This document shows positions 13,971 through 52,560 of a stretch of 64,000 nucleotides of DNA, one piece after another (within the stretch, counting starts at the first letter, position 1; every line of letters starts with the position of its first letter). The stretch covers positions 121,497,608 to 121,561,607 of the forward strand of contig JAHLJT010009436.1 of assembly GCA_031308135.1 (NCBI GenBank), written 5' to 3'. The notes beneath the pieces are model-generated. The model was not told the DNA's origin and searched no databases. It worked only from the letters and a program-made list of their open reading frames with translations. The position numbers and the translations under genes were made by a program. The DNA is from Acheta domesticus. Its lineage: Eukaryota > Arthropoda > Insecta > Orthoptera > Gryllidae.

Positions 13971-14552
13971 GAACCAACGAAAGGAATGACAGATGGGTGT
14001 GTTGGTTAAGTAAGTTTAAGGACAGAAGGGTACGGGAAGGCAACAGAATATAATTAGTCACGAAGGAATATGGCTACGTGTGATTACGAGAAAACAAGTT
14101 AAATCTGCGACTGAGGTAGTGGAAAAAAATTATGGATTGAAGTGCAGATTGGATTAAAGTACAGATAATTATGGATATAACAATTCAAGCATACATTGAC
14201 AATAAGATGATGTTTATTAGGTAGAAACGTCCTTCGACTTCCCCCGACACGGGATAAAATAGCTGGGAATTGTTTAGTAGGCACCTTAAAACTTCCAGCG
14301 TTATCAGTATTTTGACTTCCCAACTTGCCGTCAGGGAACTCATAACAATGGCCTCAGAAATCTTTAGAATCACTAGAGGCATTCTCCGTCAATGCGATGT
14401 AGAATCTGATTAGAGTGGAAATTGTCGGAGAATTTAAATTTGCCGGGAATGTGTCCAGGTTTATTTTACATTCCGCATGTGTCTACTACGCACTATCCAC
14501 CCCTTCGAAAAGCCACGCGCCTTAGAAAGACTCAGCCCCGCGCTCGACGTTG

Positions 14553-14576
14553 GCAGTACGTTAACCACTCAACCCG
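14553..14576 (-). mobile_element. SINE-like A-box segment
   Basis: On the minus strand it contains GGGTTGAGTGGTTAACG, very like the A-box region of tRNA-derived SINEs and of Ser/Leu-type tRNAs. A downstream B box is weak. If this is a SINE it runs leftward from here. The allele in copy B is at about 36,224-36,248. Confidence 0.3.
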
Positions 14577-15164
14577 TGAGGTGCGCACTGCTGTTAAAAG
14601 AGGCAGCAATATTATGGGAGAGAGTAGCGAGAGCTCCATCAAACAGAGAAAGATTTATTCTCGTAGCTCTAGGAATGGTAGAACGGCGCCTCGCATATAC
14701 GTTGCGCCTGGTTGTCCGTGTGGGCGGAAGTTATCGAGAGTTTGCTTTACACAAGGCCAATGTGACAATTACTACCTGGTAACATAACTGACGATTCTGT
14801 CCATGCCCTGCCAACCATGGCAATCTGCGTTACTATCGTGATTCGTCCGTTTGCTATTGGATCACTTGTGTATGGCTTCGACATTTCCTCATGAGGGCTC
14901 ATCGTCCGAAGAAAACATAGTGCATCACAACAAACATGGAAACATTTTTTAAATAAGTATTATGAAGATTTCACAGAGTTTAAATGTGAGATGCGTACGT
15001 TCATCACGTAATTCGTGACCACCAATGACGTCTTTTCGAGAGCCCTCAAGGAACGTAACGTTTCAAGAAGAGGCGTTACTGCAAAACCGTCCCGGCGGAG
15101 GAATACTTCTCTGAAGTGTACATGATTTTCACTTGGTCCTATCTAGGCCTACCTCGACTATAGT

Positions 15165-15520
15165 AAGCGTGGGCGGGCGGTTATACTGGCGGTGGTGTGT
15201 TTTGGGAGGGGAGCGATCGAACGAAGAGGCAAGCTGCGGCGGCGGCGGCGGTGGCGCTGAAGGCTGTTTAGCGAAGCGAAGCGTATGCATGCGCGGCGCT
15301 GGGCGCCCCGCCGCGCGGACAGCCGCGATTTGCGGACCCGTCCCGCGGGGACGCGCGGGCGCCGCGCCGCCGCCGCGCGCTGACTAACTGCCGGCCCGCA
15401 CGGCAGGCCCCGCCGCCGCCGCCGCCACGCATCCGGCCTCCTCTGCTCCGCTGGCGTCCACGGCGACGCGCCGCCACCAGCATCCGTCGCTCCGTCACGC
15501 ACGCTGGCACCCCCGCAAGC
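15165..15520. promoter_or_regulatory. CpG-rich patch, copy A
   Basis: CpG-dense with CGG triplets near 15,236-15,253; counterpart at 36,830-37,190. Scattered indels between the copies, many not multiples of three, break every long frame here. It is non-coding unless those indels are assembly errors. A pyrimidine-rich segment follows to about 15,800. Confidence 0.35.
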
Positions 15521-15821
15521 GTTATTATCCCACTTCACTCCCCGGATCGTCTTCTTCACTCCTCGCAGTTATTTTCGCTTCAACGCGCCCAGATTCTTTG
15601 CACTCTTTCATCAGATCTCTCATTTCTGGTGTTGCCAACTTTGCCGTGGATATCATCATTCTCCGATCCCAAGGCGCGGGCGAATGTTACAGGTAGCATC
15701 AAATGTTGTTCCCAATATCTCTTTCATAATTTACTCATTGTCAGTTACATCTACTCTGTTCATGCACATCTCGTTTCTAACCTTTTAATTCCATTTCCTT
15801 CTTTCATGTAATGTATACAGT

Positions 15822-15841
15822 GGGTTGGGTTAGGTTAGGTG
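15822..15841. repeat. Short TTAGG-like run
   Basis: Two to three TTAGG-type units, the usual insect telomere motif, also present at 37,491-37,500. Too short to indicate a telomere or a translocation. Confidence 0.3.
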
Positions 15842-15984
15842 GTGTCGGGTAAGTAGAAATGTATGACTAACAAAGCATAACTTAAAACTATGACATTTTT
15901 CTCTCACTTGACTTAAAAAATTCGCAACAGCAGTTTACTTTCTTTTTATCACGTACTATCTACTATTATGCGTCACTGAAACGT

Positions 15985-16055
15985 ACTATCTCAGCCACCT
16001 GGCGTTGCCGAATGTTCATTTCATACGGCGTAAGTTCGAATTCCGATACTCGCCC
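15985..16055 (+). mobile_element. tRNA-like sequence, possible SINE head, copy A
   Basis: An A-box-like TATCTCAGCCACCTGG (15,987-16,002) and a B-box-like AGTTCGAATTCC (16,033-16,044) sit at a tRNA-like spacing on the + strand. No convincing acceptor stem closes around them. A tRNA pseudogene is the alternative. The allele is at 37,646-37,715. Confidence 0.45.
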
Positions 16056-16239
16056 TTCTTCGGATTTTTCCCATTCATTTTGTTTAATATGAACATTAAC
16101 AGTTTATTTCGCAAATTTAACACATACTAACGTTTACACCCTTAGGTTACACACACGAAATAGTTCCATAAAATTAAAGTATATTATTCATATAAATATT
16201 ATTTACTTCAACGTTTATTTTCATTCAGATCAAATCCTC

Positions 16240-16725
16240 GCATCAGTACCACACCAGCGCTATAACAAGAACCGCCGCTCCGCGCCCAGTGCCACCAGCG
16301 CCGCGTGCGTAATTACGCAGCGGTTCCGCTGGTGCGATTAATCGGAAGGGCTTCCTCTGTAAATCCGGCGGTGTCGCCGCCGTTTCTTTATGCCCCCGCA
16401 GCGCGCGCGGTGCCCGCCCAGGCCGGCCTCGCGCGCCCGCCTTACAAGGCCAAACGTCCGCGCGCTCGACGCCGTCGTTCGTCTGCGAGACGAAAACCCG
16501 GGAACCACGCGAGGGACCGAAGGCGTGGGCCGAGCCGCTCGAGACCCGCTTCGATGGATGCATGGGACAACGCCACCCAGAGGGGACACAGAAAGAGAGA
16601 GGGAGAGAGAGGGGGAAGATAAGAAAGAAAAAGAGCGAGAGAAAAACGAGAAAGAGAGAGAAAGAGAGGTGGAGAGGTAATGGAAAAAGGTGGCGATAGA
16701 AACGGAAGATAATTTGGGAAGGAGG
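16240..16725. promoter_or_regulatory. CpG-rich patch with adjoining GA-rich tract, copy A
   Basis: CpG-dense from 16,245 to about 16,570, then almost pure purine (AGAGAGAGGGAGAG type) to about 16,725. A 184-codon antisense frame spans it but is broken by indels in copy B (37,910-38,385). GA tracts bind GAGA-type factors in insects; function here is inferred. Confidence 0.35.
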
Positions 16726-18365
16726 AGGCAGGTTGAATACTTCTAGACAGGTCGCATGAGAAATGGGTGTTACAGAGTTTGACGGGTTGCGTGACAATTG
16801 GACATCGCTATTTCCCAGCCACTGCCTTCCTTCTACTCTGTCTTCGGGATATTGCCAAGCAAGTTTAGTAAGTAGTCAATTTGCATCCGATTATTGATGT
16901 TTGGATGATTTTTGATATACGGAAAGGCAAAATATTTTTAAGTACTAAAGATTTAAATTAAACTTGTTAACATCTTCTAATACAACTTGAAGTATTGCTA
17001 TTTTGAAATCAAAGCTCACGAATACGGAAGGTCACGGAAATTTTTAAAATTACAATGAAAATGTAGTCATTTGAAAACTCCCTGAATAGATCTCTGGTTG
17101 TTGAATTGCCAGCAAAAGCTTGTCAGAGAATGAAAACGACTGCAGTAATAGGACATTGTTGGTTGAGACCTTAAAATAAATTGAGAAAAAGATTTAAGAA
17201 AGAATCATTTCGCCCACGATACCGAATAAAAAAGACGTAAATAAATATATTAATAAATTAATGGGAAGGATTGTTTAAGCAGCATACAGAAACGATAAAA
17301 AAACACGTCTCAGGGGAAAATAAAAGACAACATAAAGAAATAAACGTGAAGAACACTGAAGGATGCAATGGTAGAAAAAACAGAACACCGAAGGCTAGCT
17401 CTACATGTGTATCACGACGCGCCGTGGCCGACGCGTTAGTCAACAACGGAAGCGTGGCGGAAGGCGCAGCGTATACACGCAGCACGACAGTGCTGCCTCC
17501 GCGGGACGACGACTGTGCGGGGGAGCTCAGCGGCTGTACCAACATCCGGCTGCGCGGATGCCTAGTGTTCATCCAACATCTCACATGTTCCGAAAGTGTA
17601 TTTTATTAGCATCAAGTGTAATGTGGCAATAAAAATCAGTTTTAAATACGATCCGATACCATGAAATGAAACGTAAAGCATAACATATTTCTGAAATGGA
17701 TATTAATCTAAATTTAACAACTCTTCCATTAAAAAATTTAAAAACGTATCTAATGCGTCAAAAGCGCAGCACCTATGGTAAGAAGAGCCAATTTAGTATG
17801 TTAAGCAATAATGTAAAATGTAACATCATATCCGTTTCGGATGTCTTAGAGATTACAGCGCGTCAACGAAGTTGCGATTACTTTCCAAGTGGTAGGACTT
17901 TATTCTCACAATGAATAAGAAGATTTATTTATTACAATAAACGTGATGATTCCTTTATAAGTATTATCACAAAAAATCTATAAAATATCATCACAGAAGT
18001 GATCGTAAAAGCACATAAAATAATCACAAAAGTCACGAAGAGCGATAACAAGTTGTGTTTTAACAATTGAGGTAACGAGGATTAAAGGAGTCAGAGAGAT
18101 ACAATATTGATTCGCGAGACATAATCTAACAAGTCTGCCGTTAAGAAGGGAGTTTGTTTTTGAATTGTAAATAAAAAGATGTATCTAGGGGTCCGGGGGG
18201 TGCACGTTGAGTGAAATTTTAAAATAGTATCAGGACATTCAGTTCGGTTAGAAATAATACCGTGGAGAAATAGCAGTTCCGCAAAAAGATTCTCCTTGTT
18301 AGCGATGATTGTAAATGAAAAGATTCTGGCGTATTCTCGCCATGGAATTAGTGGGTAGTTTTCCT
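16726..18365. other. Non-coding stretch with one small CpG-rich segment, copy A
   Basis: AT-rich except for a CpG-rich segment at 17,400-17,580, matched at 39,045-39,235. Open frames of up to 112 codons here differ between alleles. No gene was recognised. Confidence 0.5.
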
Positions 18366-18369
18366 TCTT

Positions 18370-18428
18370 AACTGCAATATGCTGAACTGCAGATGCTGAT
18401 GCAGATGCTGAACTGCAGATGCTGATGA
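18370..18428. repeat. CTGCAGATGCTGATG minisatellite, copy A
   Basis: Overlapping TGCAGATGCTGA and TGCTGAACTGCAGA units. Copy B (40,014-40,075) has a slightly different arrangement, so the array varies between alleles. Confidence 0.7.
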
Positions 18429-18699
18429 TTTAGAATACTGATGACCCAAACTTCAATCACCTTTAATAACATTTAAAATATTTTCTTCCTAGAATTTACC
18501 ACATTAGTTTTATCACTACGAATCAATTTAACATCATTTAGATCTGTCATAGAAAACGTTTCAGTCAGCTTCAAACCAACAACACCACTCCGTGTAATCA
18601 ACAGTGCATAACATTTGGTTGCAGATACACCTATATCACCCTACTTTTCAATGGTACTTCTATCGACCCTAAACGAACATTGCCATGTTTACTCATCGC

Positions 18700-18980
18700 C
18701 AGGTGTGTCGTCCCCTGTTGCTGCCTCCCGTCGTCGCACGTGAAGCTGTGGCGGCTCGGTCGCGAGGCGACGCTGGGCTCCGACGCGACCTTCGGCGCAG
18801 CTAAACAGCTCTCGCGAATCACCGGACGTTCCGTGCTCCGTGGGTGGTTTATGATGCAGCGCAATAGGCCGCGGAATGTGGAGCTCATAAAGCGTTGCTG
18901 CACACACGCTGCAGTCGGCGCAGCGGCCCTAGTTTCGCAGCGTCGCGAATGAGTCTGCGCGCCAGGCGGCCGGAACAAAC
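18700..18980. promoter_or_regulatory. CpG-rich patch, copy A
   Basis: CpG-dense segment with GTTTATGATG and GAGCTCATAAAG words; counterpart at 40,360-40,640. The right-hand 190 bases are nearly unchanged between copies. A 115-codon antisense frame (18,631-18,978) is only partly retained in B and has no domain. Candidate regulatory DNA. Confidence 0.35.
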
Positions 18981-20055
18981 CAACCCAACGCAGTGCACGA
19001 GGATGAGCCTCGTAGTTTCTCGTCTCGCCAATTTTGACGTCAACTGATGCACAAGCTTATGTTGTGAATATAATGAGATGCTTTATACCTCTAATCTTCA
19101 GGACACCTGGCAATTATTCTATATTTTTACTTCGATAAAATGTATTTATCTATTATAGATAATCACACAAATCAAATAAAATGCCTCATGCAATTTCAAC
19201 TTGATATTACAATCGTAGTTATACAAGACTCAATTCTACGTTATTGCATTTCAGGACTATTCACATTTTATGGTGGAATTGGTCAAATTTCATTTGACTT
19301 TTTGCATTAATTTTTTGTTCCTGTTACTTTGCTTGCAACAATCAATATGTATGTTTTGTATAAATGTACGTCTTATCTTTATCAAGAGAAATTATGTTTA
19401 AATTTTCACTTGATTGCAAACTTAATTTCTTCTCTTTTTAGTTGTTTAATTAGCTCCAAGATGTTTATTAGTTTGACGGAAAAAGAAAAAAAATGTCTCT
19501 CAGAAATAAGTGCTTGAGAGAAAGGCGTTTCTTTATGTGAACTAGTAAATTTTATAGAACTGTATTTTCTCATGATATAATTAGCCTACAAAACTCCCTG
19601 CCTCCGAATTTAATAGCTTCTCCAGAAAGAAATGTATCTTTTGATCATTACGAGGAATGCAATTTTATATAGACAGGCTTGTTAGAATGATGCTCTGGTC
19701 GACTTGTAACTTCACTCCAACATCAACATAATTCTACGTAAGAAATATGTCTAGAAATCGATGAATCACATCTTAAAAAGCCGACCGCCTCACAAACAAG
19801 GAAGAAAATCCAATTTCCATAAAGACGATTCCAAATAGGATCGCTGCGAGAGGAAACGAGACAGGAGCAGAAGTATCTCGAAAAGTAGCTATTCGTAATC
19901 GCCCCGCCTAATTTAGAGAGCCGTTTTCCCCCCTACTTTGCCTTCTCCTTCGCGTTCTCCGAGTGGGAGGAGGCAGAAGAAGAAATCTTTCTCCGTAGAA
20001 AAGATACGCAAGGTTTCTCTTCCACGTTTTATCAATCCAATCCCGGTCTCCGATA
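18981..20055. other. AT-rich stretch, no gene seen, copy A
   Basis: AT-rich non-coding DNA, highly similar to 40,641-41,715. No RNA gene or exon was recognised. Confidence 0.5.
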
Positions 20056-20059
20056 CTCT

Positions 20060-20560
20060 GAAGAGCCCACTGCTTAGGTCGGTAAACCCGCGCTTGTGCC
20101 GGCTGTGCCCGCTAATTTGCGACCGGCCCGCTCTTCCCCCCGCCCTCCACCGCTGGAGAGCCAGACTAAGGCTTTGTCAAATTTACGAGGGCGCGGATCT
20201 CGGGCAAAATTGAAGCCGTCCGCGCAGAAACTCTGCCGTGAAAGACAGTAGACGGGCGGTCCGCGACGAAGTGCGGTGCGGCGCCGTGTTCGTAGATCCG
20301 TGAATCATTAGTCGGAGGCCAAGCAGAAACGGTGTTGGACGGCGCGCCGAACCAACCGGGAAACACGAATGGATGAACACGAAGCAAACAAACAAACAGA
20401 TAAACAGACCTTACCGGTCACGACTTGACGAGAGTCCCTTTGTGACGGCGCTACTTGAAATTTTCGCTGGAGCCGGGCCGCGCCGCGGAGGTGGATGTGG
20501 TGGCGGCGGCGACGACGTACCAGTGTCCGCAACTTGTGTTTGCGCTCCGTTTGACAAGAT
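20060..20560. promoter_or_regulatory. CpG-rich patch, copy A
   Basis: CpG-dense with a GCGGAGGTGGATGTGG-type G-rich run near 20,480-20,515; counterpart at 41,720-42,210. Frames on both strands differ between copies because of indels. Candidate regulatory DNA. Confidence 0.35.
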
Positions 20561-21815
20561 ACGCGTGTAAACAGAGATGTCAGGCACGAATGAAATAATG
20601 AGGAAGTTCTCAGGAGAGCTATGAATAGCTTCTACGCCAAAGAAAGCATGAAGCATGACTTACGTGTCATTTAAAACAACACAGAATGCAGCTGCGCGGA
20701 TGAAACATTGTATCAAGTACCCGGAAAGAAAACTAAGAGGCTATTTTTCTTTAAGTTAGGCTTTGTAAATTCTTGCAATATGTATACAAGATAAACAAGA
20801 TCTTTCAGCATTTTAAAGGAATAACCGAATCGCCCAAAACAGAATTTGTAAAGCAGGAAGACTGAGGTTTAATGCACTGTTTCATTTATCGCTCAGTTTG
20901 CACTTTCACGCTCAACTACTTTTAACGGGGGCATCGAGATAAACGTAATGAATTGCGAAAGTAGTTTTGAAGGAAAGGTGGAATATTATGATCAAGTGAC
21001 TAATCTTTTATCTACGTACGTTTGCAAAATGACCAGATTTCACATTTCTCTTCGATATTTCTAACCCGTTGGCTCATTATAAACAAGATTATAATTTAAA
21101 AGAGTAATAAAGAAATATATTAGAAGCATTTACATTAATATACAGGAGAAAAAGATAATAACATTAAATTAATTTATTCTTAATATGTACTAAGAATGTA
21201 CAGGAATACGTGACACCCAAGGAAGAAGTAACATAAGAGAGTTGCATGAGAGATGGTGAATGCAATATTGTATAGAGCTGTTCTAAGGATGCACATTGAA
21301 ATTTATAGAAAAGGTACTGGAATGATTTTCGTAAGCGGCAATCCCTAAGAATGGTATTTCCACAATTATAGGAAAAAATATGAACTAAAATATTTACTAT
21401 TAATTCTTATAAATTGTACACGTCTCCATTTTAATATGCAGAAAAACATTTACAGAAAATAGTCTGTGTTCTCACCAAACATTTCGTCGGTTCTAAACTT
21501 CGTGTTCGCATCTTATGATTTTAAACATTGAGATATTAACATAGAAAATGTTCTTACCACCATCGAGGATTTTGTTGCAGAGACAATACAATTTTTGGAC
21601 CAGAGATACACACTGAAGCTCACTGCCGTACATGATTATAATAACTAGCATACTGCCTTCTTTATACTCTACAATGTATTCTGTACATTATATAGCAGTG
21701 ATATCAGTTTTGCTTTGAAAAGAGCCGTTGCTTGTTGGTGTCGCAAATGTTATATTTTCTATTCTCAGCCATAAAACAAGCGACGAGAAACGCCGAACGG
21801 TGAGCCGTTGCTACG
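20561..21815. other. AT-rich stretch, copy A
   Basis: Non-coding. At about 21,136 it has the empty target site corresponding to the TG...CA insert found in copy B. Confidence 0.5.
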
Positions 21816-21819
21816 TTTG

Positions 21820-21829
21820 CCGCGCGCGC

Positions 21830-21896
<67 letters not shown>

Positions 21897-21975
21897 CGCG
21901 CGTGCGTGCGTGTGCGTGTGTGCGTGTGTGTGTGTGTGTGTGTGCGTTAGTGCGTGTGCGTGTGCGCGCGCGCGT
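21820..21975. repeat. (TG)n/(CG)n microsatellite, long allele
   Basis: About 156 bases of alternating TG, CG and interrupted TGCG units. The allele in copy B (43,910-43,967) is only about 58 bases. Alternating purine-pyrimidine DNA of this kind can adopt the Z form. Confidence 0.95.
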
Positions 21976-22850
21976 AGAGAGAGGCGGGGACGGTGATAGT
22001 AATTCGAGAGCAACTGTTTGACACATATTACGGCAGATGGATAGTTATTACTAGGGGGCGGATTTTAAAGAAATGTCATTTTGTTCTTTTCACTTCAGAA
22101 CAATGCAGTTATAGAAACTAATAGCTATAATAACTATAGTTATAGAAACTAATTTTATGTTATGACAAAACAAATTGTCATAACATAAATGCCAATTTTA
22201 TATGTCATTGTTTCGCATTTTCATCAATTTTGACTGAGAAATCATTTTTCACCTTTTCTGTTATTTTTAATGCACTGCTCGCTAATTTAATCAATTTTAA
22301 TATCATTTTAATGGCACTTGCTTCAAATAATATTGACAAGGTGCAAAAAAATAATGTTTTCCACAGAATTCGTAAGTAGCCTATTCGATTTCTTCGCTCA
22401 GAAATTGTAATGTCAGTTGTAATGTAAGGTTTCTGCGACCCTTACCGACGCCATTGTCGGTTCAGCCGATTTCGGGATAACAAAAGCGCAAGATTTCCTG
22501 ATCAAGAACAATCCAAACCAAAAGTCTGAAAGCTGGGTTCACTTGAACGAATAGAAGAAATCTCGATTACATCAGTAACGTATTCTACAACTTGAGTTGT
22601 TTATCTGAAGTGATTTTTGTCACATTTTTTATGTAATTTTTCTTTGCTTTTAGGAAATATTTAAAAAAATTTTAAGAGCATTTTATTGATCATTTTTGGT
22701 GATATTTTAGGTCATGAAAATCCGCACCCTATTTACTACCTTCGTTCAAAAATCAGAAGAACAAATCGAGGGGCCGTCAAAACGGCAAAGGCGCATTCAA
22801 AACGGTGCTACACGCGTGTCTACTCGTCAAGACAATCCGCATGTAGTCAC
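21976..22850. other. AT-rich stretch, copy A
   Basis: AT-rich with a short near-duplicated TTATAGAAACTAAT motif (22,111-22,156). No gene was recognised. Confidence 0.5.
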
Positions 22851-23190
22851 GTGCTACACTTCCCACGCCGAGACTAAAGCCAACGCCTCCCCGCGGCCAA
22901 CCGAGAGCGCTTCCCGGGCCGCGGCACGCCACGCCGCACTGCGGGGCAGTCCTCCCGCGCCCGGCGCACGCAACCCGCGTCGCGGAGTGCTCCGGCGCAC
23001 AAAGCGCTAACGAACGGCGCGGCGCGGCGCGGCGCGGAGGCGCGTCTCGGGAGGCCGCATCACACCGCTGCGGCCGCGCCAGCACAATGGCAGGGCGGTC
23101 GGGGGCTCTTCTTGCGCGCAGCTGCCGGCGACCACGCCCCCCTCCCTGGCCACACCTCTCGCGCGGGGCAGCAGCAGGAGGAGAAGGTGG
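22850..23190. promoter_or_regulatory. CpG-rich patch, copy A
   Basis: Strongly CpG-dense, with GGCGC repeats near 23,017-23,040; counterpart at 44,865-45,185. A 177-codon antisense frame (22,777-23,310) is not preserved in copy B, where indels change the phase. Confidence 0.35.
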
Positions 23191-23485
23191 CAGACAACGG
23201 AGAGGAGGTCGAGAGGAGAAAAGGAGAAGAGAGAGATGGCCACGAGAGTAGAGTAGAGGGAGAGAAAGACTGGAGAAAAGTGGGCAGGGGAAAGCAAAAG
23301 AGAAGGGCAACAGGGCCGAATGGGGGAAGAAGAGAAAGAGGAGAAGGAGAACGAAGAAAAGGCGGAAGAAAAAGGGCTACGAGAAGAAAAGGGACAAGAG
23401 ATGCGGTGAGATGAAGAGAAGGAAAGGAGAAGAAGGAAATATGCGGGAGAACATGAGAGAAAACAAGATGAAAAGGAAGAATAGT
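23175..23485. repeat. Long purine-rich tract, copy A
   Basis: About 310 bases of nearly pure A and G on the + strand, directly adjoining the CpG-rich patch; counterpart at 45,190-45,500. Glu/Arg/Lys-rich frames across it are compositional. Confidence 0.7.
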
Positions 23486-23832
23486 GTTTGTGTCAGCTCC
23501 AGTTCACTATCTTCTCTGCCCGCACGGCGTCTATTCAGATCTATGAATTCGTGGCCCTGTCCAAATAACGCATTCAAATTGATTCTTTCAGTGATCAAAA
23601 TGTCTCCTGCCGCAATTTCAAATTTGTTATGATTAGTCAAGTTTAAAGTTAGCTTAATAAATTAGTCTGTCTTTTCTTGTCTTCATCTCGTTCTTCTGGT
23701 ATTGGTGAGAATTATGTATTTTTAATCAATGTAATAAATAACCCACCGTAAGAGATTTTACGTTAAAATGTCAATATTTTTTCATATATTTTGTATTTGT
23801 GATTCATTTTATTTTTCTTACAATTTCTGTAG

Positions 23833-24113
23833 CTCTTGAAAATCGAAGAAGCATCCAAAAACGCTCCGTGGCAATGGCGCCTTGGTAGAGTTGCGTTACA
23901 GCGGAGTACAATAGATGGACGAGAGTTGTTCTGGAACGTTTCTGACCACGATCTGGTGCTCGCCCGACCACTCGAAGGAACAGAACGGCCGGCCTTGCGG
24001 ATTCAGTTTATTTCTGTATCTCCTTCTCCTCCCCAAACTCCTCCCCTCACCAGCTACCGCATCTTTCTCTGGCCCGTTCATTTTAAATTCTTCAAAATGT
24101 ATGCCACTCAATA
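23833..24113 (+). CDS. Tentative exon-like frame, copy A
   Basis: An open frame follows a polypyrimidine-rich run ending in TTCTGTAG (23,825-23,832), a plausible splice acceptor. Its translation includes the segment NAPWQWRLGRVALQRST, which matches no family I recognise. Against copy B (45,850-46,090), six of eight substitutions up to the first indel fall in third codon positions and five are synonymous. That is mildly suggestive of coding constraint, but the sample is tiny. No convincing splice donor was found, and a one-base indel near 24,073 breaks the downstream frame. There is no ATG start. A chance open frame remains quite possible. Confidence 0.2.
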
Positions 24114-24510
24114 GATCAGCTGCTTCTAAATATATATCGCAAATCCATCTTTACTATGAAGAACTCTTTATTCACTCTATGCGAGAGTTTTATGGCATAA
24201 GAAGTTATGTTGTGGTTGGATAGGTCTTACAATTTTATACTATCTTTAGCATGGAGAACGAATTTATTAAGTTTTCTTACTGATCCATCTGCCACCATTA
24301 ATTACACATGAAGTCACAATTGTTTTAAATACATCCGTAATGAATCATATTTACTTTAGCCCCAATATAATAAGAGTTTACAATTCTTCTCTCTGTATAT
24401 AAGATGAGACCATACGTCTTGCATTTTCGTTCTTTGTAATTGTTGTCCTATCGCCAAAGTTGGCCTCACAAGACATTTTATTTCAGCTTCCCTTACCAAC
24501 AAACATTTCC
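24114..24510. other. AT-rich stretch left of the LINE
   Basis: Non-coding, close to identical with 46,116-46,525 in copy B. It ends at the insertion site of the LINE. Confidence 0.5.
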
Positions 24511-24517
24511 CCCACTT
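24511..24517. repeat. Target-site duplication, left
   Basis: CCCACTT, repeated at 29,772-29,778. The empty allele in copy B reads CCCTACTT at the equivalent place, one base different, so the duplication is inferred from both flanks. Confidence 0.7.
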
Positions 24518-24548
24518 ATAATAATGTCTTTATTGATATGGCGAGGCT

Positions 24549-24564
24549 CGGGCCATCAGGCCCG
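24549..24564. other. Hairpin in the LINE 3' tail
   Basis: CGGGCC-ATCA-GGCCCG forms a perfect 6-bp stem with a 4-nt loop about 31 bases from the element's 3' end. The same hairpin is at 739-754. In several LINE families the reverse transcriptase recognises a 3' stem-loop; this one is a candidate for that role. Confidence 0.6.
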
Positions 24565-25301
24565 CTCTTCCGCCTAACCACATATCACATGTTAACAATT
24601 TAGTTCATACAATGCAATTTACAAAAGTACAAGTATGATAGTTTATATTAGGTAAGTTATATTATAATAGGTAAGTAGTTAGTTGAGTTGAAGTATCATT
24701 TGAAGCAACTTATGAACAATATCAAAGGTTAAACAGATACAAAAAATGTTACAGAATAAAATTTGAAAAAGAGAAAAGAATTTGAATTTAGAGACGGAAA
24801 TCGACAACAAAAATTTAAATTGCATGACGTTATGCGCTCCACTTGTCTGCGCGCTACGCGGCAGCCTGGTATTCACCCCGAGCGACTGTAATCTATTAAT
24901 ACAGAAACATACCATTTTACCCGCCGCTCGGCCCTGGAGGAAAACCCGCTAGTCGGGGAAAACCCACCAGGCAGGCTGCGTCCTAATACAAAGTTAAGCT
25001 AAGCTAATCTGAAGTGAGAGGTCCTTGGAATGTTTTCCTCAGCTGCTGTCCATGCTGCACGGGGTCGTCTTCTTGCGTGTGCTTAACTCCGCCTCTGCTC
25101 CTAAGAATGAAATACAGTTCCGGCAGTATCAAACAATTCGCACGAAAGTAAATTTTCAACAAAAATACATTAATATTATTCCTAAAAATATATTAATAAT
25201 TTCTAGATACTTCTGAGGAAGAGGTAAAACTGTCATGAGTTTAATTTGATAACTGACAATTAATAGTTATTTAAATTGTAAACTGAACTGATGTAAACCG
25301 A

Positions 25302-31485: not shown

Positions 31486-31489
31486 TACA

Positions 31490-40075: not shown

Positions 40076-40359
40076 ATTTAGAATACTGATGACCCAAACT
40101 TCAATTACCATTTATAACATTTAAATATTTTTTTCCTAGAATTTACCACATTAGTTTTATCACTACGAATCAATTTAACATCATTTAGATCTGTCATAGA
40201 AAACGTTTTAGTCAGCTTCAACCAACACAACAACCACTCCGTGTAATCAACAGTGCAATTACATTTGGTTGCAGATACACCTGTATCACCTACTTTTTAA
40301 TGGTACTTCTATCGAGCCTAAACAAACATTGCCATGTTTACTCATCGCCAGGTGTGTCG

Positions 40360-40640
40360 TCCCCTGTTGCTGCCTCCCGTTCGTCGCACGTGAAGCTGTG
40401 GCGGCTCGGCGCGAGGCGACGCTAGGCTCAGACGCGACCTTCGGCGCAGCTAAACAGCTCTCGCGAATCACCGGACGTTCCGTGCTCCGTGGGTGGTTTA
40501 TGATGCAGCGCAATAGGCCGCGGAATGTGGAGCTCATAAAGCGTTGCTGCACACACGCTGCAGTCGGCGCAGCGGCCCTAGTTTCGCAGCGTCGCGAATG
40601 AGTCTGCGCGCCAGGCGGCCGGAACAAACCAACCCAACGC
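40360..40640. promoter_or_regulatory. CpG-rich patch, copy B
   Basis: Allele of 18,700-18,980. From about 40,437 onward it is nearly identical to A. Confidence 0.35.
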
Positions 40641-41719: not shown

Positions 41720-42210
41720 TAGGTCGGTAAACCCGCGCTTGTGCCGGCTGGGCCCGCTAATTTTGCGACCGCCCGCTCTCCCCCCCTCCACCGCTGGAGA
41801 GCCAGACGAAGGCTTTGTCAGATTTACGAGGGCGCGGATCTCGGCAAAATTGAAGCCGTCCGCGCAGAAACTCTGCCGTGAAAGACAGTAGACGGGCGGT
41901 CCGCGACGAAGTGCGGTGCGGCGCCGTGCTCGTAGGTCCGTGAATCATTAGTCGGAGGCCAAGCAGAAACGGTGTTGGACGGCGCGCCGAACCAACCGGG
42001 AAACACGAATGGATGAACACGAAGCAAACAAACAAACAGATAAACAGACCTTACCGGTCCACGACTTGACGAGAGTCCCTTTGTGACGGCGCTACTTGAA
42101 ATTTTCGCTGGAGCCGGGCCGCGCCGCGGAGGTGGATGTGGTGGCGGCGGCGACGACGTACCAGTGTCCGCAACTTGTGTTTGCGCTCCGTTTGACAAGA
42201 TACGCGTGTA
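41720..42210. promoter_or_regulatory. CpG-rich patch, copy B
   Basis: Allele of 20,060-20,560, with small indels near 41,760-41,790. Confidence 0.35.
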
Positions 42211-42783
42211 AACAGAGATGTCAGGCACGGAATGAAATAATGAGGAAGTTCTCAGGAGAGCTATGAATAGCTTCTACGCCAAAGAAAGCATGAAGCATGA
42301 CTTACGTGTCATTTAAAACAACACAGAATGCAGCTGCGCGGATGAAACATTGCATCAAGTACCCGGAAAGAAAAACTAAGAGGTTATTTTTCTTTAAGTT
42401 AGGCTTTGTAAATTCTTGCAGTATGTATACAAGATAAACAAGATCTTTCAGCATTTTAAAGGAATAACCCAATCGCCCAAAACAGAATTTGTAAAGCAGG
42501 AAGACTGAGGTTTAATGCACTGTTTCATTTATCGCTCAGTTTGCACTTTCACGCTCAACTACTTTTAACGGGGGCATCGAGATAAACGTAATGAATTGCG
42601 AAAGTAGTTTTGAAGGAAAGGTGGAATATTATGATCAAGTGACTTAATCTTTTATCTACGTACGTTTTGCAAAATGACCAGATTTCACATTTTTCTTCAA
42701 TATTTCTAAACCCGTTGGCTCATTATAAACAAGATTATAATTTAAAAGAGTAATAAAGAAATATATTAGAAGCATTTACATTA

Positions 42784-42787
42784 ATAT
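42784..42787. repeat. Target-site duplication, left, of the TG...CA insert
   Basis: ATAT, repeated at 43,215-43,218; copy A has it once. Confidence 0.5.
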
Positions 42788-43214
42788 TGTGATATACCAA
42801 TGATTCAGGAAAGAGTAGACAATGGCAGGTGGTTGCTAGGGGGCTTTGTTGATAATAAGATGGAAGTCGACTTTTTGTGAGGAGGTAAAAAAAGTTTTGT
42901 TTGTAACCAAAAGTTCTGCGAAGTTGTATTCGTTCATTGAAGTAAAAATAAAATTGGTGATTGTAGTGCAACCTGAAAGTGATTTGAGTTATTTAGGTGC
43001 AGCGACCGCTAAGATCAGTCAGAAGTTGAATTGTGATCCAGAAGTGAGAAAATGTCTGCAAGCAACCGAGCAAATCCGCAGCAATCAATAGCCAAAAAAA
43101 ACTTTCACGGAGGTCCGCCGTATGGCGGGCGGGTCGGGTGGCCCAAACAGTTTCATGGTAAGCAAATGGTAGATTTGACATTCAGTAACAGTAGAAAGAA
43201 GCAGATTTGTTACA
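42788..43214. mobile_element. Probable solo LTR present only in copy B
   Basis: A 427-bp block absent from copy A. It begins TGTGA and ends TTACA, giving the 5'-TG...CA-3' termini of an LTR with short TGT/ACA inverted ends. It is flanked by a 4-bp ATAT duplication, the length usual for Gypsy-type integration. An AATAAA lies at 42,947-42,952. No retroelement coding sequence is attached, so it would be a solo LTR. Two short frames (42,846-43,091 and 43,052-43,249) overlap and resemble no known protein. Alternatives are a non-autonomous DNA element, or a deletion in A between two AATAT words. Confidence 0.5.
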
Positions 43215-43909
43215 ATATACAGGAGAAAAAGATAATAACATTAAATTAATTTATTCTTAGTATGTACTAAGAATGTACAGGAATAACGTGACACACAAGC
43301 AAAGAAGTAACATAAAGAGAGTTGCATGAGAGATGGTAAATGCAATATTGTATAGAGCTGTTCTAAGGATGCACATTGAAATTTATAGAAAAGGTACTGG
43401 AATGATTTTCCTAAGCCGCAATTCCTAAGAATGGTATTTCCACAATTATAGGAAAAAATATGAACTAAAATATTTAATATTAATCTTATAAATTGTACAC
43501 GTCTCCATTTCAATATGCAGAAAAACATTTACAGAAAATAGTCTGTGTTCTCACCAAACATTTCGTCGCTTCTAAACTTCGTGTTCGAATCTTATGATTT
43601 TAAACATTGAGATATTAACCTAGAAAATGTTCATACCAAATAGTTCATCCTCGAGGATTTTGTTGCAGAGACAATACAATTTTTGGACCAAAGATACACA
43701 CTGAAGCTCACTGCGTACATGATTATAATAACTAGCATACTGCCTTCTTTATACTCTACAATGTATTCTGTACATTATATACCAGTGATGTCAGTTTACT
43801 TTGAAAAGAGCTGTTGCTTGTTGGTGTCGCAAATGTTATATTTTCTATTCTCAGCCATAAAACAAGCGACGAGAAACGCCGAACGGTGAGCCGTTGCTAC
43901 GTTTTGCCG

Positions 43910-43967
43910 CACGCGCGCGTGTGCGTGGCGTGCGTGGTGTGTGTGTGTGTGTGCGCGCGCGCGCGTA
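43910..43967. repeat. (TG)n/(CG)n microsatellite, short allele
   Basis: Allele of 21,820-21,975, roughly 100 bases shorter. Confidence 0.9.
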
Positions 43968-44864
43968 GAGAGATGCGGGGACAAGCGATAGTAATTCGAG
44001 AGCGACTGTTTGGACGCATTCTACGGCAGATGGATAGTTATTACTAGGGGGCGGATTTTAATGAAATGTCATTTTGTTCTTTTCACTTCAAAACAATACA
44101 GTTATAGAAACTAATAGCTATAATAAATATAGTTATAGAAACTAATTTTGTTATGACAAAAACGAATTGGTTATAACATAAATGCCAATTTTATATGTCA
44201 TTTTTTCGCATTTTTCATCAATTGTGACTGAGAAATCATTTTTCACCTTTTCTGTCATTTTTAATGCATTGTTCGCTATTTTAATCGATTTTAATATCAT
44301 TTTTAATGGCACTTGCTTCAAATAATATTGACAAAGGTGGCAAAAAATAATCCACAGAAAAAAAATTCTCCACAGAATTCGTAAGTAGCCTATTCGATTT
44401 CTTCGCTCAGAAATTGTAATGTCAGCTGTTGTAATGTAAGTTTTCTGCGACCCCTATCGGCGCCATTGTCGGTTCAGCCGATTTCGGGATAACAAAAGCA
44501 CAAGATTTCCTGATCAAGAACAATTCCAAACCAAAAGTCTGAAAGCTGGGTTCACTTGAACGAATAGCAGAAACCTCGATTACATCAGTAACGTATTCTA
44601 CAACTCGAGTTGTTTATCTGAAGTGATTTTTGTCACATTTTTTTATGTAATTTTTCTTTGCTTTTAGGAAATTTAAAAAAAATTAAGAGCATTTTATTGA
44701 TCATTTTTTGGTGATATTTTGTCATCAAAATCCGCACCCTATTTACTACCTTCGTTCAAAATCAGAACAAATCGAGGGGCCGTCCGGTTTCAAGAGGCGC
44801 ATTCAAAACGGGTGCTACACGCGTGTCTTACTCGTCAAGACAGATCCGCATGTAGTCACGTGCT
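43968..44864. other. AT-rich stretch, copy B
   Basis: Allele of 21,976-22,850, with small insertions such as the duplicated CCACAGAA word near 44,352-44,378. Confidence 0.5.
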
Positions 44865-45185
44865 ACACTTCCCACGCCGAGACTAAAGCCAACGCCTCCC
44901 CGCGGCCAACCGAGAGCACTTCCCGGGCCGCGGCACGCCACCCCGCACTGCGGGGCAGTCCTCCCGCGCCCGGCGCACGCAACCCGCGTCGCGGGAGTGC
45001 TCCGGCGCACAAAGCGCTAACAAACGGCGCTGGCGCGGCGCGGCGCGGAGGCGCGTCTCGGGAGGCCGCATCACACCGCTGCGGCCGCGCCAGCACAATG
45101 GCAGGGGCGGTCGGGGGCTCGTCCTTGCGCGCAGCTGCCGGCGACCACGCCCCCCTCCCTGGCCACACCTCTCGCGCGGGGCAGT
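44865..45185. promoter_or_regulatory. CpG-rich patch, copy B
   Basis: Allele of 22,850-23,190. Frames differ from those in A because of one- and two-base indels. Confidence 0.35.
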
Positions 45186-45189
45186 AACA

Positions 45190-45500
45190 CAGGGAGGAGG
45201 CTGCAGACAACGGAGAGGAGGTCGAGAGGAGAAAAGGAGAAGAGAGAGATGGCCACGAGAGTAGAGTAGAGTAGAGGGAGAGAAAGATTGGAGAAAAGTG
45301 GGCAGGGGAAGCAAAAGAGAAGGGCAACAGGGCCGAATGGGGGAAGAAGAGAAAGAGGAGAAGGAGAACGAAGAAAAGGCGGAAGAAAAAGGGCTACGAG
45401 AGGAAAGAGGCAAGAGGTGCGGCGAGATGAAGAGAAGGAAAGGAGAAGAAGGAAATATGCGGGGGAACATGAGAGAAAACAAGATGGGAAAGGAAGAATA
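45190..45500. repeat. Long purine-rich tract, copy B
   Basis: Allele of 23,175-23,485. Confidence 0.7.
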
Positions 45501-45849
45501 GTGTTTGTGTCAGCTCCAGTTCACTATCTTCTCTGCCCGCACGACGGCTATTCAGATCTACGAATTCGTGGCCCAGTCCAAATAACGCATTCAAATTGAT
45601 TCTTTCAGTGATCAAAATGTCTCGTGCCGCAATTTCAAATTTGTTATGACTAGTCAAGTTTCAAGTTAGCTTAATAAATTAGTCTGTCTTTTCTTGTCTT
45701 CATCTCGTTCTTCTGGTATTGGTGATAATTATGTATTTTTAATCAATGTAATAAATAACCTACGTAAGAGATTTTACGTTTAAAATGTCAATTTTTTTTC
45801 GTATATTTTGTATTTGTGATTCATTTTATTTTTCTTGCAATTCTGTAGC

Positions 45850-46090
45850 TCTTGAAAATCGAAGAAGCATCCAAAAATGCTCCGTGGCAATGGCGCCTTG
45901 GTAGAGTTGCGTTACAACGGAGTACAATAGATGGACGAGAGTTGTTCTGGAACGTTTCTGACCACGATCTGGTGCTCGCCCTACCACTCGAAGGAACAGA
46001 ACGGCCGGCCTTGCGCATTCAGTTGATTTCTGCATCTCCTTCTCCTCCTCAAACTCCTCCCCTCACCAGCTACCGTATCTTTCTCTGGCC
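45850..46090 (+). CDS. Tentative exon-like frame, copy B
   Basis: Allele of the frame at 23,833-24,113, with the acceptor-like TTCTGTAG retained at 45,841-45,848. The frame stays open but shifts by one base near 46,088 relative to A. Unknown product; see the entry for copy A. Confidence 0.2.
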
Positions 46091-46115
46091 GTTCATTTTA
46101 AATTCTTCAAAATGT

Positions 46116-48268
46116 ATGCCACTCAATAGATCAGCTGCTTCTAAATATATATCGGAAATCCATCTTTACTATGAAGAACTCTTTATTCACTCTACGCGAG
46201 AGTTTTATGGCATAGGAAGTTATGTTGTGGTTGGATAGGTCTTACAATTTTATACTATCTTTAGCATGGAGAACGAATTTATTCAGTTTTCTTACTGATC
46301 CATCTGCCACCATTAATTACACATGAAATCACTATTGTTTTAAATACATCCGTAATGCATCATATTTACTTTAGCCCCAATATAATAAGAGTTTACAATT
46401 CTTCTCTCTGTATATAAGATGAGACCATACGTCTTGCATTTTCGTTCTTTGTAATTGTTGTCCTATCGCCAAAGTTGGCCTCACAAGACATTTTATTTCA
46501 GCTTCCCTTACCAACAAACATTTCCCCTACTTCTACTGCCTTCACGTCATGTCCTCTTTCTCAATCCCACCTTCTTAGTCTCACGTTCCTCCGCAACCGT
46601 TCACACTCTCCCCCTTCTCCCTCTCTCACTCAATGCAGCTACCCCTCCATCTCCTCTGCTTCCTGACCTTCCCGCGCGGTTGGAGAGGCTGCTCCAATTG
46701 TGTGGATTCCAGCCACCAGCACTCTCCGCTCCCCTTGCGTTCTTCCTTCCGAGCCTGACCAGCACAGTGCCTGCGCCGCCAACGATGTCCAGCTGTTGTT
46801 CGAGTACTCTTCCTCCCTGCCAGCCCCCCTCCCTATCACCCTTCCGCTTCACTCCGCTGACCCTTGACCCGAGCTCTTCGCCCTACACGCTGTGCCTTCG
46901 CTTGTTAGTGACCTTGTTCGAAACGACCGCCCATTCTATAACCTCGGTGACCTCGGCATCCAGGAAATACGACTGAAATTATCTTTCTCCATTGTAATTG
47001 ACATAATAAAATGAATTAAGGTTGTTTTTTTAAAGAGAATGGGATGATATCTTACAGGATTTGTGAGTTAAATGAAAATTGCTTTATTCATCGTGTTAAG
47101 CAAATACATTTTTACAGGCTACTAAAGTAGGTACAGTTACAGTTCAGCATGTTCGTAAGTTGAAATGACTCATTGTTTTCAAACTACTTTATATTTTTGT
47201 CGAAAGTTGTTCATTTCATATTTTTTATTGTCAAGCTGTAAATTTATTAATTTATAATTCCTTTCCTTTATTTCAAACGAAGAAAGGGATTTCTCCCAAA
47301 AACAATTGATTTATAAATTGAGGTTTTGAAAAGTCAACAGTTTAAAATCAAACAAACATAAATACGATGAAATAGTATTTTGAAATTCATTAGCATTTAA
47401 TATTTTTGTTTTCCCAATAAGTTTCAACTACCTGTACATTCACACGTTATCCCAAAAACTTATTTATGAACGTGGATGCATGATAAAGTTATGTCGTTTT
47501 GAGAAACTTTTGTCTGTTTATGTACTTGTACCGTAACCAAAAACAAAGTTTGTTTATAAATTGACTGCAGTGGTGCGTGGTACTTAATAAAATAACGCCG
47601 TCTAGGAAGATCTGAAGGAAGCCTGCGGAAATTCAGGGAACGTACGTCAATCGCATCTTCAACAATTAACAAACAAGGCAGAGCCGGGTGTTATTGCTTT
47701 GGCAGATAAATCGATATTGATGAAGCCGGTCGGGTGCCGGAGAGAAACGCCGAGGAGGGAAGTACGGGAACCGAAGATAATTTGCGCGAGGATCCTTGCC
47801 TCTCCTTCCTTCCAAGTTGTTGCGCATACTTCGCCGTTTCAACGTGGGTGCTTCTGCCGTCACTGCTTCTGCTCCACGTACTTTACCAACACCACATCTT
47901 GGGTTTCCCTCTCCCTTTACAAATGCTTGCTTCGTAACACATTTCTTCGCTTTATTTTCTGCTGATGATACTCTGCAGGCGAAACAATTCCATTTCCTCC
48001 ACTACGTTATATCAATTGTAACCATTTCCTTTTCTTTACATTTTTCTCTAAAACAATTCCAAAACTATACTCCATTTATTTCATTGTATTTTTCTACAAA
48101 CCCATTTATCTAGCTCAGTCACTATTTTGCGAGGCTGAACGTGTTCGCATCCCTCCCTACATCAATGAAGCAGTCAAGAAGCGGTGCTTTCAGTAAACAC
48201 CTCATTGGGGCTTCTCCATTTCATTCCCTTCACCCTGAATTCCACGCACCTGCGGGAGGGTGAGGCGT
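46116..48268. other. Non-coding stretch spanning the empty LINE site, copy B
   Basis: Continuous across the point where copy A carries the LINE (about 46,525-46,530). It includes the pyrimidine-rich segment with a 173-codon low-complexity frame (46,455-46,976). No gene accepted. Confidence 0.5.
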
Positions 48269-48269
48269 A

Positions 48270-48640
48270 ATTACAGACCGGAAGAAAACACCTTCGGCGC
48301 ATCTTAACCCGCGCGGCACATTTAAGCAGGTCTTGCAAAAGCTCGCGGCGTTCCACGGCGGAAACCCGTCAATTTTGTGAAGTTGCGCGCGGAGGGAGGC
48401 GGCCTGGAGGAAGCGCCCCACATCATCCCCCCTCCACCCCGCCCGCTGGGAGTGGAGGGGAGGGAGCGCGTTAAACAGATTTAACGCAATAATTTCGCGT
48501 CCTCTCGAGGGCGCGCGGGCCACCTGAAGGGGTAAATAAGCGGAGCCTCGTTAGGCGCAGACGAGTGCGTGAAGGGGGCCCGCGACAGCGACGGCGCAGG
48601 CGAGGGCGAAGGCGATGCACTCCCGAGGGACGAGGTTGCT
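48270..48640. promoter_or_regulatory. CpG-rich patch with inverted repeat, copy B
   Basis: Allele of 31,490-31,850. The 20-bp inverted repeat is intact at 48,468-48,487. Confidence 0.4.
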
Positions 48641-49849
48641 TGGTGGTGAACATGACAAACACTGACATTAGTTGCCAGAGGTGAGTTGGCATGAAATAAG
48701 GACAATGTATTTTTGCGAGAAGAAATACAAAACAAAATCCCAGTTAACAGTTTCTCACAAACCATTTTAAAATTCTAGTTTTCACAATTAGATAAAGTAT
48801 ACGAAAAAAATACCAAAATATAAAATAATATTTTTAATTTACATCACGTCTTTTACTGTGTCAATTTTAATTCAATTATTCAAAGCAATAATCACCAACA
48901 TCATCAAATTCCTGCTTCTCGAATATAGTCACTAAGATTTTTTTTTCATAAAATGCATGTGATTTGGAATTGCTTCAATGAAATCACCGACTCAAAACCA
49001 AAAAATAGTCACTGATGGCAGATTTGTGGATATAAAACTGACGATTCCATAGAATGAACAAAAAATTCTTGCTTTTATGTCTTCTCTGAGCAGGTGTACC
49101 GTGACATGCAGCGTTTACGAGCATGGAGCAATTGTGTTTGTTATTTCCAAGACTAATCCAATATTAATTTAATTGAAGACTAATTAGAATATGACAAATC
49201 TTAGCTTTTCTAAAAACTGAAAATTATTAAGATTACGAACAAAATCGTTATAAATATATTTCAATTAAATTTTCACTCATAGCCACAATTTTCATCATTG
49301 AACATTTTTCAAAATAAAAATACCAAGATTTATATAAATAGCAAATTTTTAAACAACAATGTAATACTTCATAACAATATGCTTCCTAAAAGACAGTAAA
49401 ACATTGTTTGGTTTTTCCAGGAAAAGAAAACTCACTCGAACGACTTGCTAATGAAGTAACAGATGCACTACTTGAAATGTTACAAATGAGTTAGTTTTAA
49501 TATTTCTTGAATCTTTTCTTGAATAATATCAACGACATACTCGACAAGTTATTGATACATACGAAGAAAAATTTCCCGTGAAAAGAAGAAATCATCGCCA
49601 TTATTTAAAAAAATCATTACAAGGAAATGGTGATAAATATGAGCAACAATAATCAGCAGTAATATATTAGGAAATGTTTTCTGCCACCACGTCAACCGGA
49701 CTCATCTATTTGCTATAGTAATAACTGAATGGCCGGAAACTAGAAGAGAACGGTGCCAAAAAACAAAACGATTGGCGGAACAGTGAAAGACGAAGACGAT
49801 GGCGGAAGAACGACGACGACCGGAGCAGTAACGTTCGTTCAATTGCGGT
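48641..49849. other. AT-rich stretch, copy B
   Basis: Allele of 31,851-33,055. No gene was recognised. Confidence 0.5.
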
Positions 49850-50290
49850 TACGGAAGTGAGCAAGTCGGGATCTTCGTCCATTGAAAACGAACGCTGGCA
49901 TCGCATGTTACACGGAAGACGGCAAGAACACAGGCGTGCTGCGGGCACAGAGGCGCGGAGAGCAGCGCACGGAGGACGAGCTGGGGCAACGAGCGCACAG
50001 CTGGCGCCGGGCGTCGGGCTGGCGGAGGCGGCGGCGGCGGCGGCTTTGAAGGCGAGCGGCGGTTTACAAGTGCGCCGCGCCGCAACCACCGCTCCGCCAC
50101 GCCACGACCAGGCGTCGCCTCCGCCTACGCCGCCTGCGCCGCCGCGCGCGCCTCGCCCCGCTTCCTTGACCTACTCAAAGCCTCCTCCGCTCACCGACGC
50201 AGGCGGCGCGGCGCGGCCCCGCGGGGGCAACGATCTCTGCTGCTGGAGCTGCTTTCGCACCTTGCGAGAGATCTTTACTGTCTCGCAAAG
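49850..50290. promoter_or_regulatory. CpG-rich patch, copy B
   Basis: Allele of 33,060-33,480, with phase-changing indels in all long frames. Confidence 0.35.
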
Positions 50291-52560
50291 AGGAAAGGAG
50301 ATATCCAGCCGAAAGACAGAGCACTTGACTGAAACGCGATAATTTTTTTATGAGTCTCCTGTCCACAGTTATGAGTATACAGTAGATAATTTCGTTGATT
50401 TATGTTCTTACAGTAAGTTTACATTTCTACAAAATTAATATTATTTTGTTAATTTTAAGACACATCCTAGAAAGTATTTACATATGATTACATATACATA
50501 TACCAATATTACATATACCAATATTGTTGAAACCAATTTACAAACAGCAAAGTGGCAGTTGGTACCATAAGTTGTATAACATTGTTACCATACAACTCTG
50601 TAAAGATAGTAAGCATATCAATCACTGCGTTTGATTTTGAAATCAGACAATAAAATATTCAAAAAGCAATCAAACATCATTAGCTTCATGTAAAAGTACA
50701 TCTGTAAATAGAAAAAAAATGATAAAAGAAGAGAAAAAGAGTGGTAAAAAAGGATATGTATTAAGAGAGTAACGACAAATATGCTTGTTAAAATGGAATT
50801 AGAAAAATATGAAGACTGAATAACACTCGTAAGTAGGATTAAGGAATTCAAAATGGAGAAAGGGAATACAATAGTGCAGTAAAAATGCATCAGAAACCCA
50901 ATGCGAAACTTATGCATGCGACCAGGCGTCTGCCAGCACCCACAGGTAAAAGGGACACGTAGGTGCACCTGCTTTCATTGCACTATCGCTCTCCTAGAGA
51001 ATTGTAAGTTATCTGGTCCCGCTCTGTAGGGCTAGGTTGGAACAGTTTGGCATTCTTCTGTATTTCAACGTCGCTGATATTGGAAGGCAGGCACCCTCCC
51101 ATGGTGACCGTACAAAATGCATGTGTATAAATTAAACATTGAAACATAATTTCTACACAGAAGATCATAAACATTCTTTTTCACTGACAGCTCATTTTTT
51201 CGCTATTGTTTTCTTTGGGAAAGAGGAATGTTGACAACAGAAATTATATATATGATTATTGATTTAATATCTGTAAAGAATGTTCTGTATATTTACTTGT
51301 TGAATCCTCCTTGTATATGAACAACCATTTTTACCGTCTGCTTCGTAGGGAAATTGTTATTTTAGGGTGGGCATGTCCTCTGGAGATAAATATATTTCCT
51401 GCTAATTTTACTTTGCGGATTACAGTGTGAAAATCAAACACAAACTGTGTTGGCCTTTCAGATTTATGATGAAATCATTGTAGTTACAAATTTATTGCTA
51501 ATAATGTATTAAAGTATTTTTCCGTTAGAAAGATATATTAGCACAAAGCGCAAAGAGTCCAAGAAAAATATTTTTGTCGTATTGTATATTTTTGATACGT
51601 TTTCGTTTATTGCTCAACAGATATCAATAAAGAATTATTTAAGTTTCTTCAAAACATTTGTATTTCAGTACGATTCTCAGCTATAGTTGTATTCGATTAA
51701 AGGCAAGTAAATTACAAGAACAATATATTCGTCCTAGTGATATTAGCGGTAAGTAAAAAGGGTCGCCAAAACAATTGAAATGGCCATAAGAGAATATACT
51801 CTCTTACAATCATTCAAGTGAAAATAAAGAATCGTTTTAAAAAGAGAAATGTAGGTATTTACATATTTACATTCCTTAGAATTGCACGAACAAAATCCTT
51901 CACATTCACTTTCTGCGTTCCTTGCGCTCACCAATCGCCATTCCTCGCACGTAGCAGGCGCTATGAACAGGTCTGCTATCAAGCTCTTGCTTACCTGCAA
52001 CAAAAAGCAAATAATAGCTGTCATATAGAAAATTTAAATGCTTCATAAACGATACAGGGGTTTTATAGATTCGAAAGTGGAACGCAGTCATTTTTGCAAG
52101 CGGAGAACATGGTTAACCTCCTGGAAATGTCGATATAATTATGATACATTGTTCAATTCGGTGTACTGCAGGCATGCTGTAAAAACCTATTCTTACACAC
52201 ATTATCCTTATTAATGCGCCTTTAACTTATCTCTTGTGCAAAAATACCCCTTTAAAAATATTACGTAAGAACTATCTCAAGCACGATACCGAAATGTAGA
52301 ACAAGAAGTAAATCTCATTATTAAAGACTGAATGGTCACCAACGGATGTTTGGAGACAATGAAAACGCATAATATAATTTACACAAAATTCAGTTTATGA
52401 AATCATGCACAACAAATTCTAAAGCATTTCCACTAAAATCTAAAATTTATTGTGGTATTGTGTGGAGGTGATAATCAATATTATGGAACTTATTAACTTT
52501 ATTCTTAAGAAAAACATTTTATTCTGACTTCATCTTCCTCTAAAACTGAACAATAGTCTC
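50291..52560. other. AT-rich stretch crossing the end of copy B
   Basis: Homology to copy A stops at 51,757 because A meets the gap. No gene or RNA was recognised; short frames near 51,743-52,091 lie on both strands. Confidence 0.5.

What the first reader, a model, noticed from the sequence alone, without database searches (positions are those of the whole stretch)
14271..51757. A 16-21 kb block is present twice, abutting both edges of a 1000-N gap: an unmerged contig overlap, not a tandem duplication
Copy A stops at the last base before the Ns, and its counterpart in copy B continues uninterrupted into unique sequence at 51,758. Copy B starts at the first base after the Ns, and its counterpart in A begins inside continuous sequence at 14,271. 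A biological duplication would not be expected to end exactly at the gap on both sides. Read dosage, gene spacing or repeat counts taken from this window would be wrong by about 16-21 kb.
Basis: seen in the sequence. Interest (0 to 1): 0.75.

Follow-up and report, generated by a model that had tools for sequence, protein, structure and literature searches.

The report
Unmerged contig overlap across a gap
A stretch of a large chromosome appears twice, once on each side of an assembly gap, almost certainly because two overlapping pieces of the assembly were laid end to end instead of being merged; the doubling is an ordinary assembly error.

Summary
Copy A (14,271-34,944) ends at the last base before a 1,000-N gap; copy B (35,945-51,757) starts at the first base after it, and the two align end to end. 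This is a dovetail overlap: the suffix of one contig equals the prefix of the next. Two results sharpen it. First, a third, 0.9-kb partial copy on contig C3423 polarises a stretch near B's start: 20 private indel events in B, 0 in A, 5 in C3423. One-base indels are densest in B's first 4.5 kb and change direction along the block, so part of the A/B difference is consensus error at a contig end. Second, haplotype-type differences also exist: a 5,254-bp LINE in A with a 7-bp target-site duplication and an empty site in B, a 431-bp indel, and substitution clusters. Both exactly-1,000-N gaps seen are flanked by similar direct copies, but only one is a clean dovetail. Published false duplications share the gap (PMC9516828, passages). 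Read depth was not available. An ordinary artefact.

The parts
14271..34944 (+). Copy A: suffix of the left contig
   Evidence: Aligned end to end with copy B; last base abuts the N gap
34945..35944 (.). Assembly gap, 1,000 N
   Evidence: Only N run of the window
35945..51757 (+). Copy B: prefix of the right contig
   Evidence: First base pairs with 14,271, last base with 34,944; other sequence from 51,758
35945..40444 (+). Error-rich first 4.5 kb of copy B (cut point chosen after seeing the bins)
   Evidence: 66 of 126 one-base indels, 47 of the 66 a base missing from B; 20 B-private indel events against 0 in A within 37,103-38,007, polarised with contig C3423
24518..29771 (-). LINE (non-LTR) retrotransposon insertion present in A only; ORF2 frame broken by a stop and by at least one frame change
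   Evidence: Endonuclease and reverse transcriptase matches in Pfam; 99% relative P0001; frames by tblastn
24511..24517 (+). Target-site duplication, left copy (7 bases)
   Evidence: Read from the sequence printed
29772..29778 (+). Target-site duplication, right copy (7 bases)
   Evidence: Read from the sequence printed
46526..46532 (+). Empty LINE site in B, a single copy of the target with one base different
   Evidence: Read from the sequence
42783..43213 (+). 431 bp present in B only; AATAT at its start and again just after it
28845..29489 (-). LINE ORF1 frame, 214 aa
   Evidence: ORF list; no Pfam match at 1e-3, three matches below their cut-offs at E 0.04-0.06
25302..27863 (-). LINE ORF2: part of the endonuclease and the reverse transcriptase, two stretches of one frame split by a stop
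   Evidence: PF14529 and PF00078

Best explanation
Two contigs of a long-read assembly overlap by one 16-21 kb region, assembled once from each of two haplotypes. The scaffolder placed them next to each other with a 1,000-N filler instead of merging the overlap, so one locus is written twice. The start of the right contig is poorly corrected, which adds one-base errors to true allelic differences (a LINE insertion, a 431-bp indel, substitution clusters). Shown: the dovetail geometry, the B-private indels in 0.9 kb, the LINE present/empty site. Inferred: that the copies are alleles of one locus, that long reads were used, and that the errors come from thin coverage at the contig end.
For: Zero-overhang match at both gap edges. 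B-private indel events 20 against A 0 and C3423 5 in about 0.9 kb. One-base indels: 48 of 126 in the first 3 kb of B against 43 of 309 substitutions (Fisher p 1e-7). Direction of one-base indels changes: A longer 47, B longer 19 in the first 4.5 kb; A longer 16, B longer 44 after it (Fisher p 1e-6); both cut points were chosen after seeing the bins. LINE with 7-bp target-site duplication in A and an empty site in B. The one other 1,000-N gap seen, in C3423, is flanked by direct copies 93% alike, the left one ending at the gap. With A's first 2 kb as query, 3 of the 45 genome matches listed exceed 90% identity: A, B and the C3423 piece (40 of 231 candidates were scored, so this is a lower bound). 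Ko et al. list a gap between the copies on one scaffold as a mark of false duplication (PMC9516828, passages); Guan et al. describe overlaps kept among primary contigs and say that, to their knowledge, scaffolders do not handle them (PMC7203741, passages).
Against: No read depth or spanning reads could be examined. Substitution density is uneven (0 to 41 per 500 bp), which also fits old paralogs. In C3423 the right-hand copy starts 764 bp inside its contig, so that case is not a clean dovetail. One-base indel density does not rise again towards A's end (3.4 per kb in the last 5.8 kb), though a contig ends there too. The third copy polarises only about 0.9 kb. One-base indels lie mostly in runs of two or more (103 of 126), which natural slippage would also give. 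A diverged direct repeat (66%) lies on both sides of the block, 9 kb and 3.5 kb outside its edges.
Confidence: 0.86

Rival explanations
1. A real tandem segmental duplication whose junction coincides with an assembly break.
For: Copies are in direct orientation and adjacent, with about 6% divergence in one block. A 66% direct repeat lies on both sides of the block, though not at its edges.
Against: Needs the break exactly at the junction on both sides. Self-BLAST reports no repeat at the two outer edges of the block that would mediate unequal crossing over. B's start shows contig-end-like errors.
Confidence: 0.06
2. A false duplication of the homotype kind: the same haplotype assembled twice because of read errors.
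For: Many B-private one-base differences near B's start.
Against: The LINE insertion with target-site duplication, the 431-bp indel and the substitution clusters are not what read errors give.
Confidence: 0.04
3. The right contig belongs to a paralogous place elsewhere and was put here by mis-scaffolding.
For: A dispersed piece of the block exists on C3423.
Against: That piece is only about 0.9 kb; the A/B match runs the full dovetail length.
Confidence: 0.04

Closest known systems
False heterotype duplication (Ko et al. 2022, PMC9516828)
   Same: Two divergent copies on one scaffold separated by an assembly gap; error-rich sequence in one copy
   Different: Depth, k-mer and linked-read criteria were not measured here
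Heterozygous overlap as treated by purge_dups (Guan et al. 2020, PMC7203741)
   Same: Collinear match between neighbouring contigs at their ends
   Different: Read-depth cut-off not measured here
Non-LTR retrotransposon (LINE) insertion polymorphism
   Same: Endonuclease and reverse transcriptase frames, target-site duplication, empty site in the other copy
   Different: Clade not determined; the ORF2 frame is broken in the sequence as given; presence/absence seen in two assembly copies only, not in individuals

Membership tests
False heterotype duplication | Gap between the duplicated pair on one scaffold | tested here: met
   1,000 N exactly between A and B
False heterotype duplication | About half the diploid read depth on each copy | not testable with these tools
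   No reads held
False heterotype duplication | Single-copy (heterozygous) k-mers in the reads | not testable with these tools
   No reads held
False heterotype duplication | Discordant linked or paired reads | not testable with these tools
   No reads held
Heterozygous contig overlap (purge_dups) | Chained collinear match between two contigs, here reaching the end of both | tested here: met
   that the N run separates two contigs is inferred
Heterozygous contig overlap (purge_dups) | Coverage of both intervals under the read-depth cut-off | not testable with these tools
   No reads held
Tandem segmental duplication | A junction that joins the two copies in continuous sequence | tested here: inconclusive
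   The place where it would lie reads N
LINE retrotransposon | Endonuclease and reverse transcriptase | tested here: met
   PF14529 1.9e-9, PF00078 2.2e-12 and 2.5e-17
LINE retrotransposon | Target-site duplication | tested here: met
   The same 7 bases on both sides, a single copy with one base changed in the empty site

The most novel reading that the evidence does not exclude
A real tandem duplication of a 15-kb block in this genome, later hit by a LINE in one copy, with the assembly broken exactly at the junction.
Probability: 0.06. Interest if true: 0.2.

Novelty: not a real feature. Interest (0 to 1): 0.1.

Why it matters
It warns that this chromosome-scale assembly keeps at least one overlap at a 1,000-N gap: keeping both copies adds about 16.8 kb (B plus gap) or 21.7 kb (A plus gap) of false sequence. 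Scanning all its 1,000-N gaps for dovetail matches would show how much of the 2.33 Gb is doubled. If the copies are alleles, the pair also records a LINE insertion present in one haplotype and absent from the other.

Tried and rejected
Genes in the block: a six-frame Pfam scan of copy B, stops as X, found 0 families at E 0.01 in 12 frame pieces, so no coding frame could be used to polarise the differences; short exons and frames broken by errors would be missed. Flanks: 7.2 kb of the left flank on the plus strand gave 0, and two open frames at 13,220-13,972 and 52,557-53,573 gave 0 at 1e-3; the rest of the flanks was not scanned. tRNA genes: 0. Rfam at gathering scores: 0. Solved structures for the LINE's 344-aa stretch: 0 at 1e-3. 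Prokaryote genome contigs for the same stretch: 32 pattern matches, none confirmed. LINE clade: no reference set at hand; not assigned. The 30 kb to the right of the window holds no N run and no megablast match to the window at 1e-20.

Full report
Observation. The window has one N run, 34,945-35,944, exactly 1,000 bases. Self-comparison gives four collinear direct blocks that together pair 14,271-34,944 with 35,945-51,757: 97.4% (6.9 kb), 94.5% (0.75 kb), 94.1% (2.6 kb) and 97.6% (5.2 kb). A global alignment has 14,924 matching columns, 309 substitutions and 158 indel events; 126 events are one base long, 63 in each direction. The first base of B pairs with 14,271 and the last base of A with 51,757; the partner runs on into other sequence on each side.

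What differs between the copies. (i) A holds 5,254 bp at 24,518-29,771, a LINE on the minus strand: ORF1 frame 28,845-29,489; endonuclease and reverse transcriptase within 25,302-27,863. The same seven bases flank it on both sides; B has the empty site with one copy, one base different, at 46,526-46,532 (sequences). ORF2 has an in-frame stop at 26,337-26,339 and at least one frame change between about 27,925 and 27,820, seen by tblastn of relatives; whether these are mutations or sequence errors is open. The nearest relative in the protein collection is 99% identical over 93% of the query, on a 3,173-base contig. (ii) B holds 431 bp from 42,783, with AATAT at its start and again just after it: an insertion in B or a deletion in A. 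(iii) A TG microsatellite differs in length. (iv) Substitutions cluster: 41 in one 500-bp bin, 0 in five others.

Errors at the contig end. Substitutions and one-base indels do not share one profile: of 126 one-base indels 48 lie in the first 3 kb of B, against 43 of 309 substitutions (Fisher p 1e-7). In the first 4.5 kb of B, 47 of 66 one-base indels lack a base in B; over the rest 44 of 60 lack a base in A (Fisher p 1e-6). The cut points were chosen after seeing the bins. The genome holds a third, partial copy at C3423:61,053-61,966, 96.4% identical to A and 92.9% to B, with 5 and 32 gap openings. In the three-way alignment A has 2 private substitution columns and no private indels; B has 20 private indel events (15 deletions, 5 insertions) and 22 private substitution columns, some of which look like misplaced indels; C3423 has 5 indel events and 26 substitution columns. 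So in this stretch nearly all A/B differences are private to B. This is what a poorly corrected contig end looks like, and it fits a contig end, not a biological junction, at 35,945. Thin coverage as the cause is inference. Against this: the density of one-base indels does not rise again towards A's end, and 103 of the 126 lie in runs of two or more equal bases, where natural slippage also acts.

Other gaps. C3423 (142,287 bases, fetched whole) has two N runs, of 5,878 and 1,000 bases. The 1,000-N gap (68,980-69,979) is flanked by direct copies 66,752-68,979 and 70,744-72,959, 93% identical; the left copy ends at the last base before the gap, the right one starts 764 bp inside. So 2 of 2 exactly-1,000-N gaps seen have direct copies on both sides, one a clean dovetail and one not. 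Two gaps cannot give a rate for the assembly, and C3423 was fetched because it matched the block, not at random.

Explanation. A dovetail with no overhang follows from two overlapping contigs set side by side. A tandem duplication would need a break exactly at its junction. Ko et al. (PMC9516828; passages) list half depth, a gap between the pair on the same scaffold, discordant linked reads and single-copy k-mers as marks of false duplications, and report more erroneous k-mers in them; the gap is met here, the rest needs reads. Guan et al. (PMC7203741; passages) describe overlaps kept among primary contigs, name most insects as an example of high heterozygosity, and state that, to their knowledge, scaffolders do not handle such overlaps. 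I put 0.86 on an unmerged haplotype overlap, 0.06 on a real tandem duplication, 0.04 on an error-only duplication and 0.04 on mis-scaffolding of a paralog.

Limits. No reads are held, so depth, k-mers and spanning reads are untested. The whole-genome search answered once and was busy in 21 other tries, so only the first 2 kb of copy A was compared with the whole assembly, and there 40 of 231 candidates were scored; a third copy of the rest is not excluded.

Noticed in passing
L015 (C3423:61053-61966) and window 15438-16354: A 0.9-kb piece of the block sits on another contig at 96.4% identity, in a contig of lower GC (33% over its first 100 kb): a dispersed or copied segment of unknown kind.
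   Followed up: partly
window, about 14818-15138: A dispersed repeat: 38 of the 45 genome matches listed for the first 2 kb of copy A fall on short stretches here, at 70-83% identity.
   Followed up: no
L023 (C3423:111020-113476): A tandem array with a period of about 32 bp, 2.4 kb long, lies directly beside pieces of a relative of the window's LINE (113482-113712 and 114118-114538, 86-89%).
   Followed up: no
C3423:1-2537 and 24218-26750 (L009, L011): Two inverted copies 98.7% identical, one starting at the first base of the contig.
   Followed up: no
window 53030-53528: An 18/36-bp tandem array just right of the block.
   Followed up: no
window 28590-28711: A (TTA)n-like microsatellite, on the element's strand, lies between ORF1 and ORF2 of the LINE.
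   Followed up: no
window 4501-5017 and 55234-55767: A diverged direct repeat (66%) present once on each side of the block; part of it also occurs on C3423 at 59436-59787.
   Followed up: no
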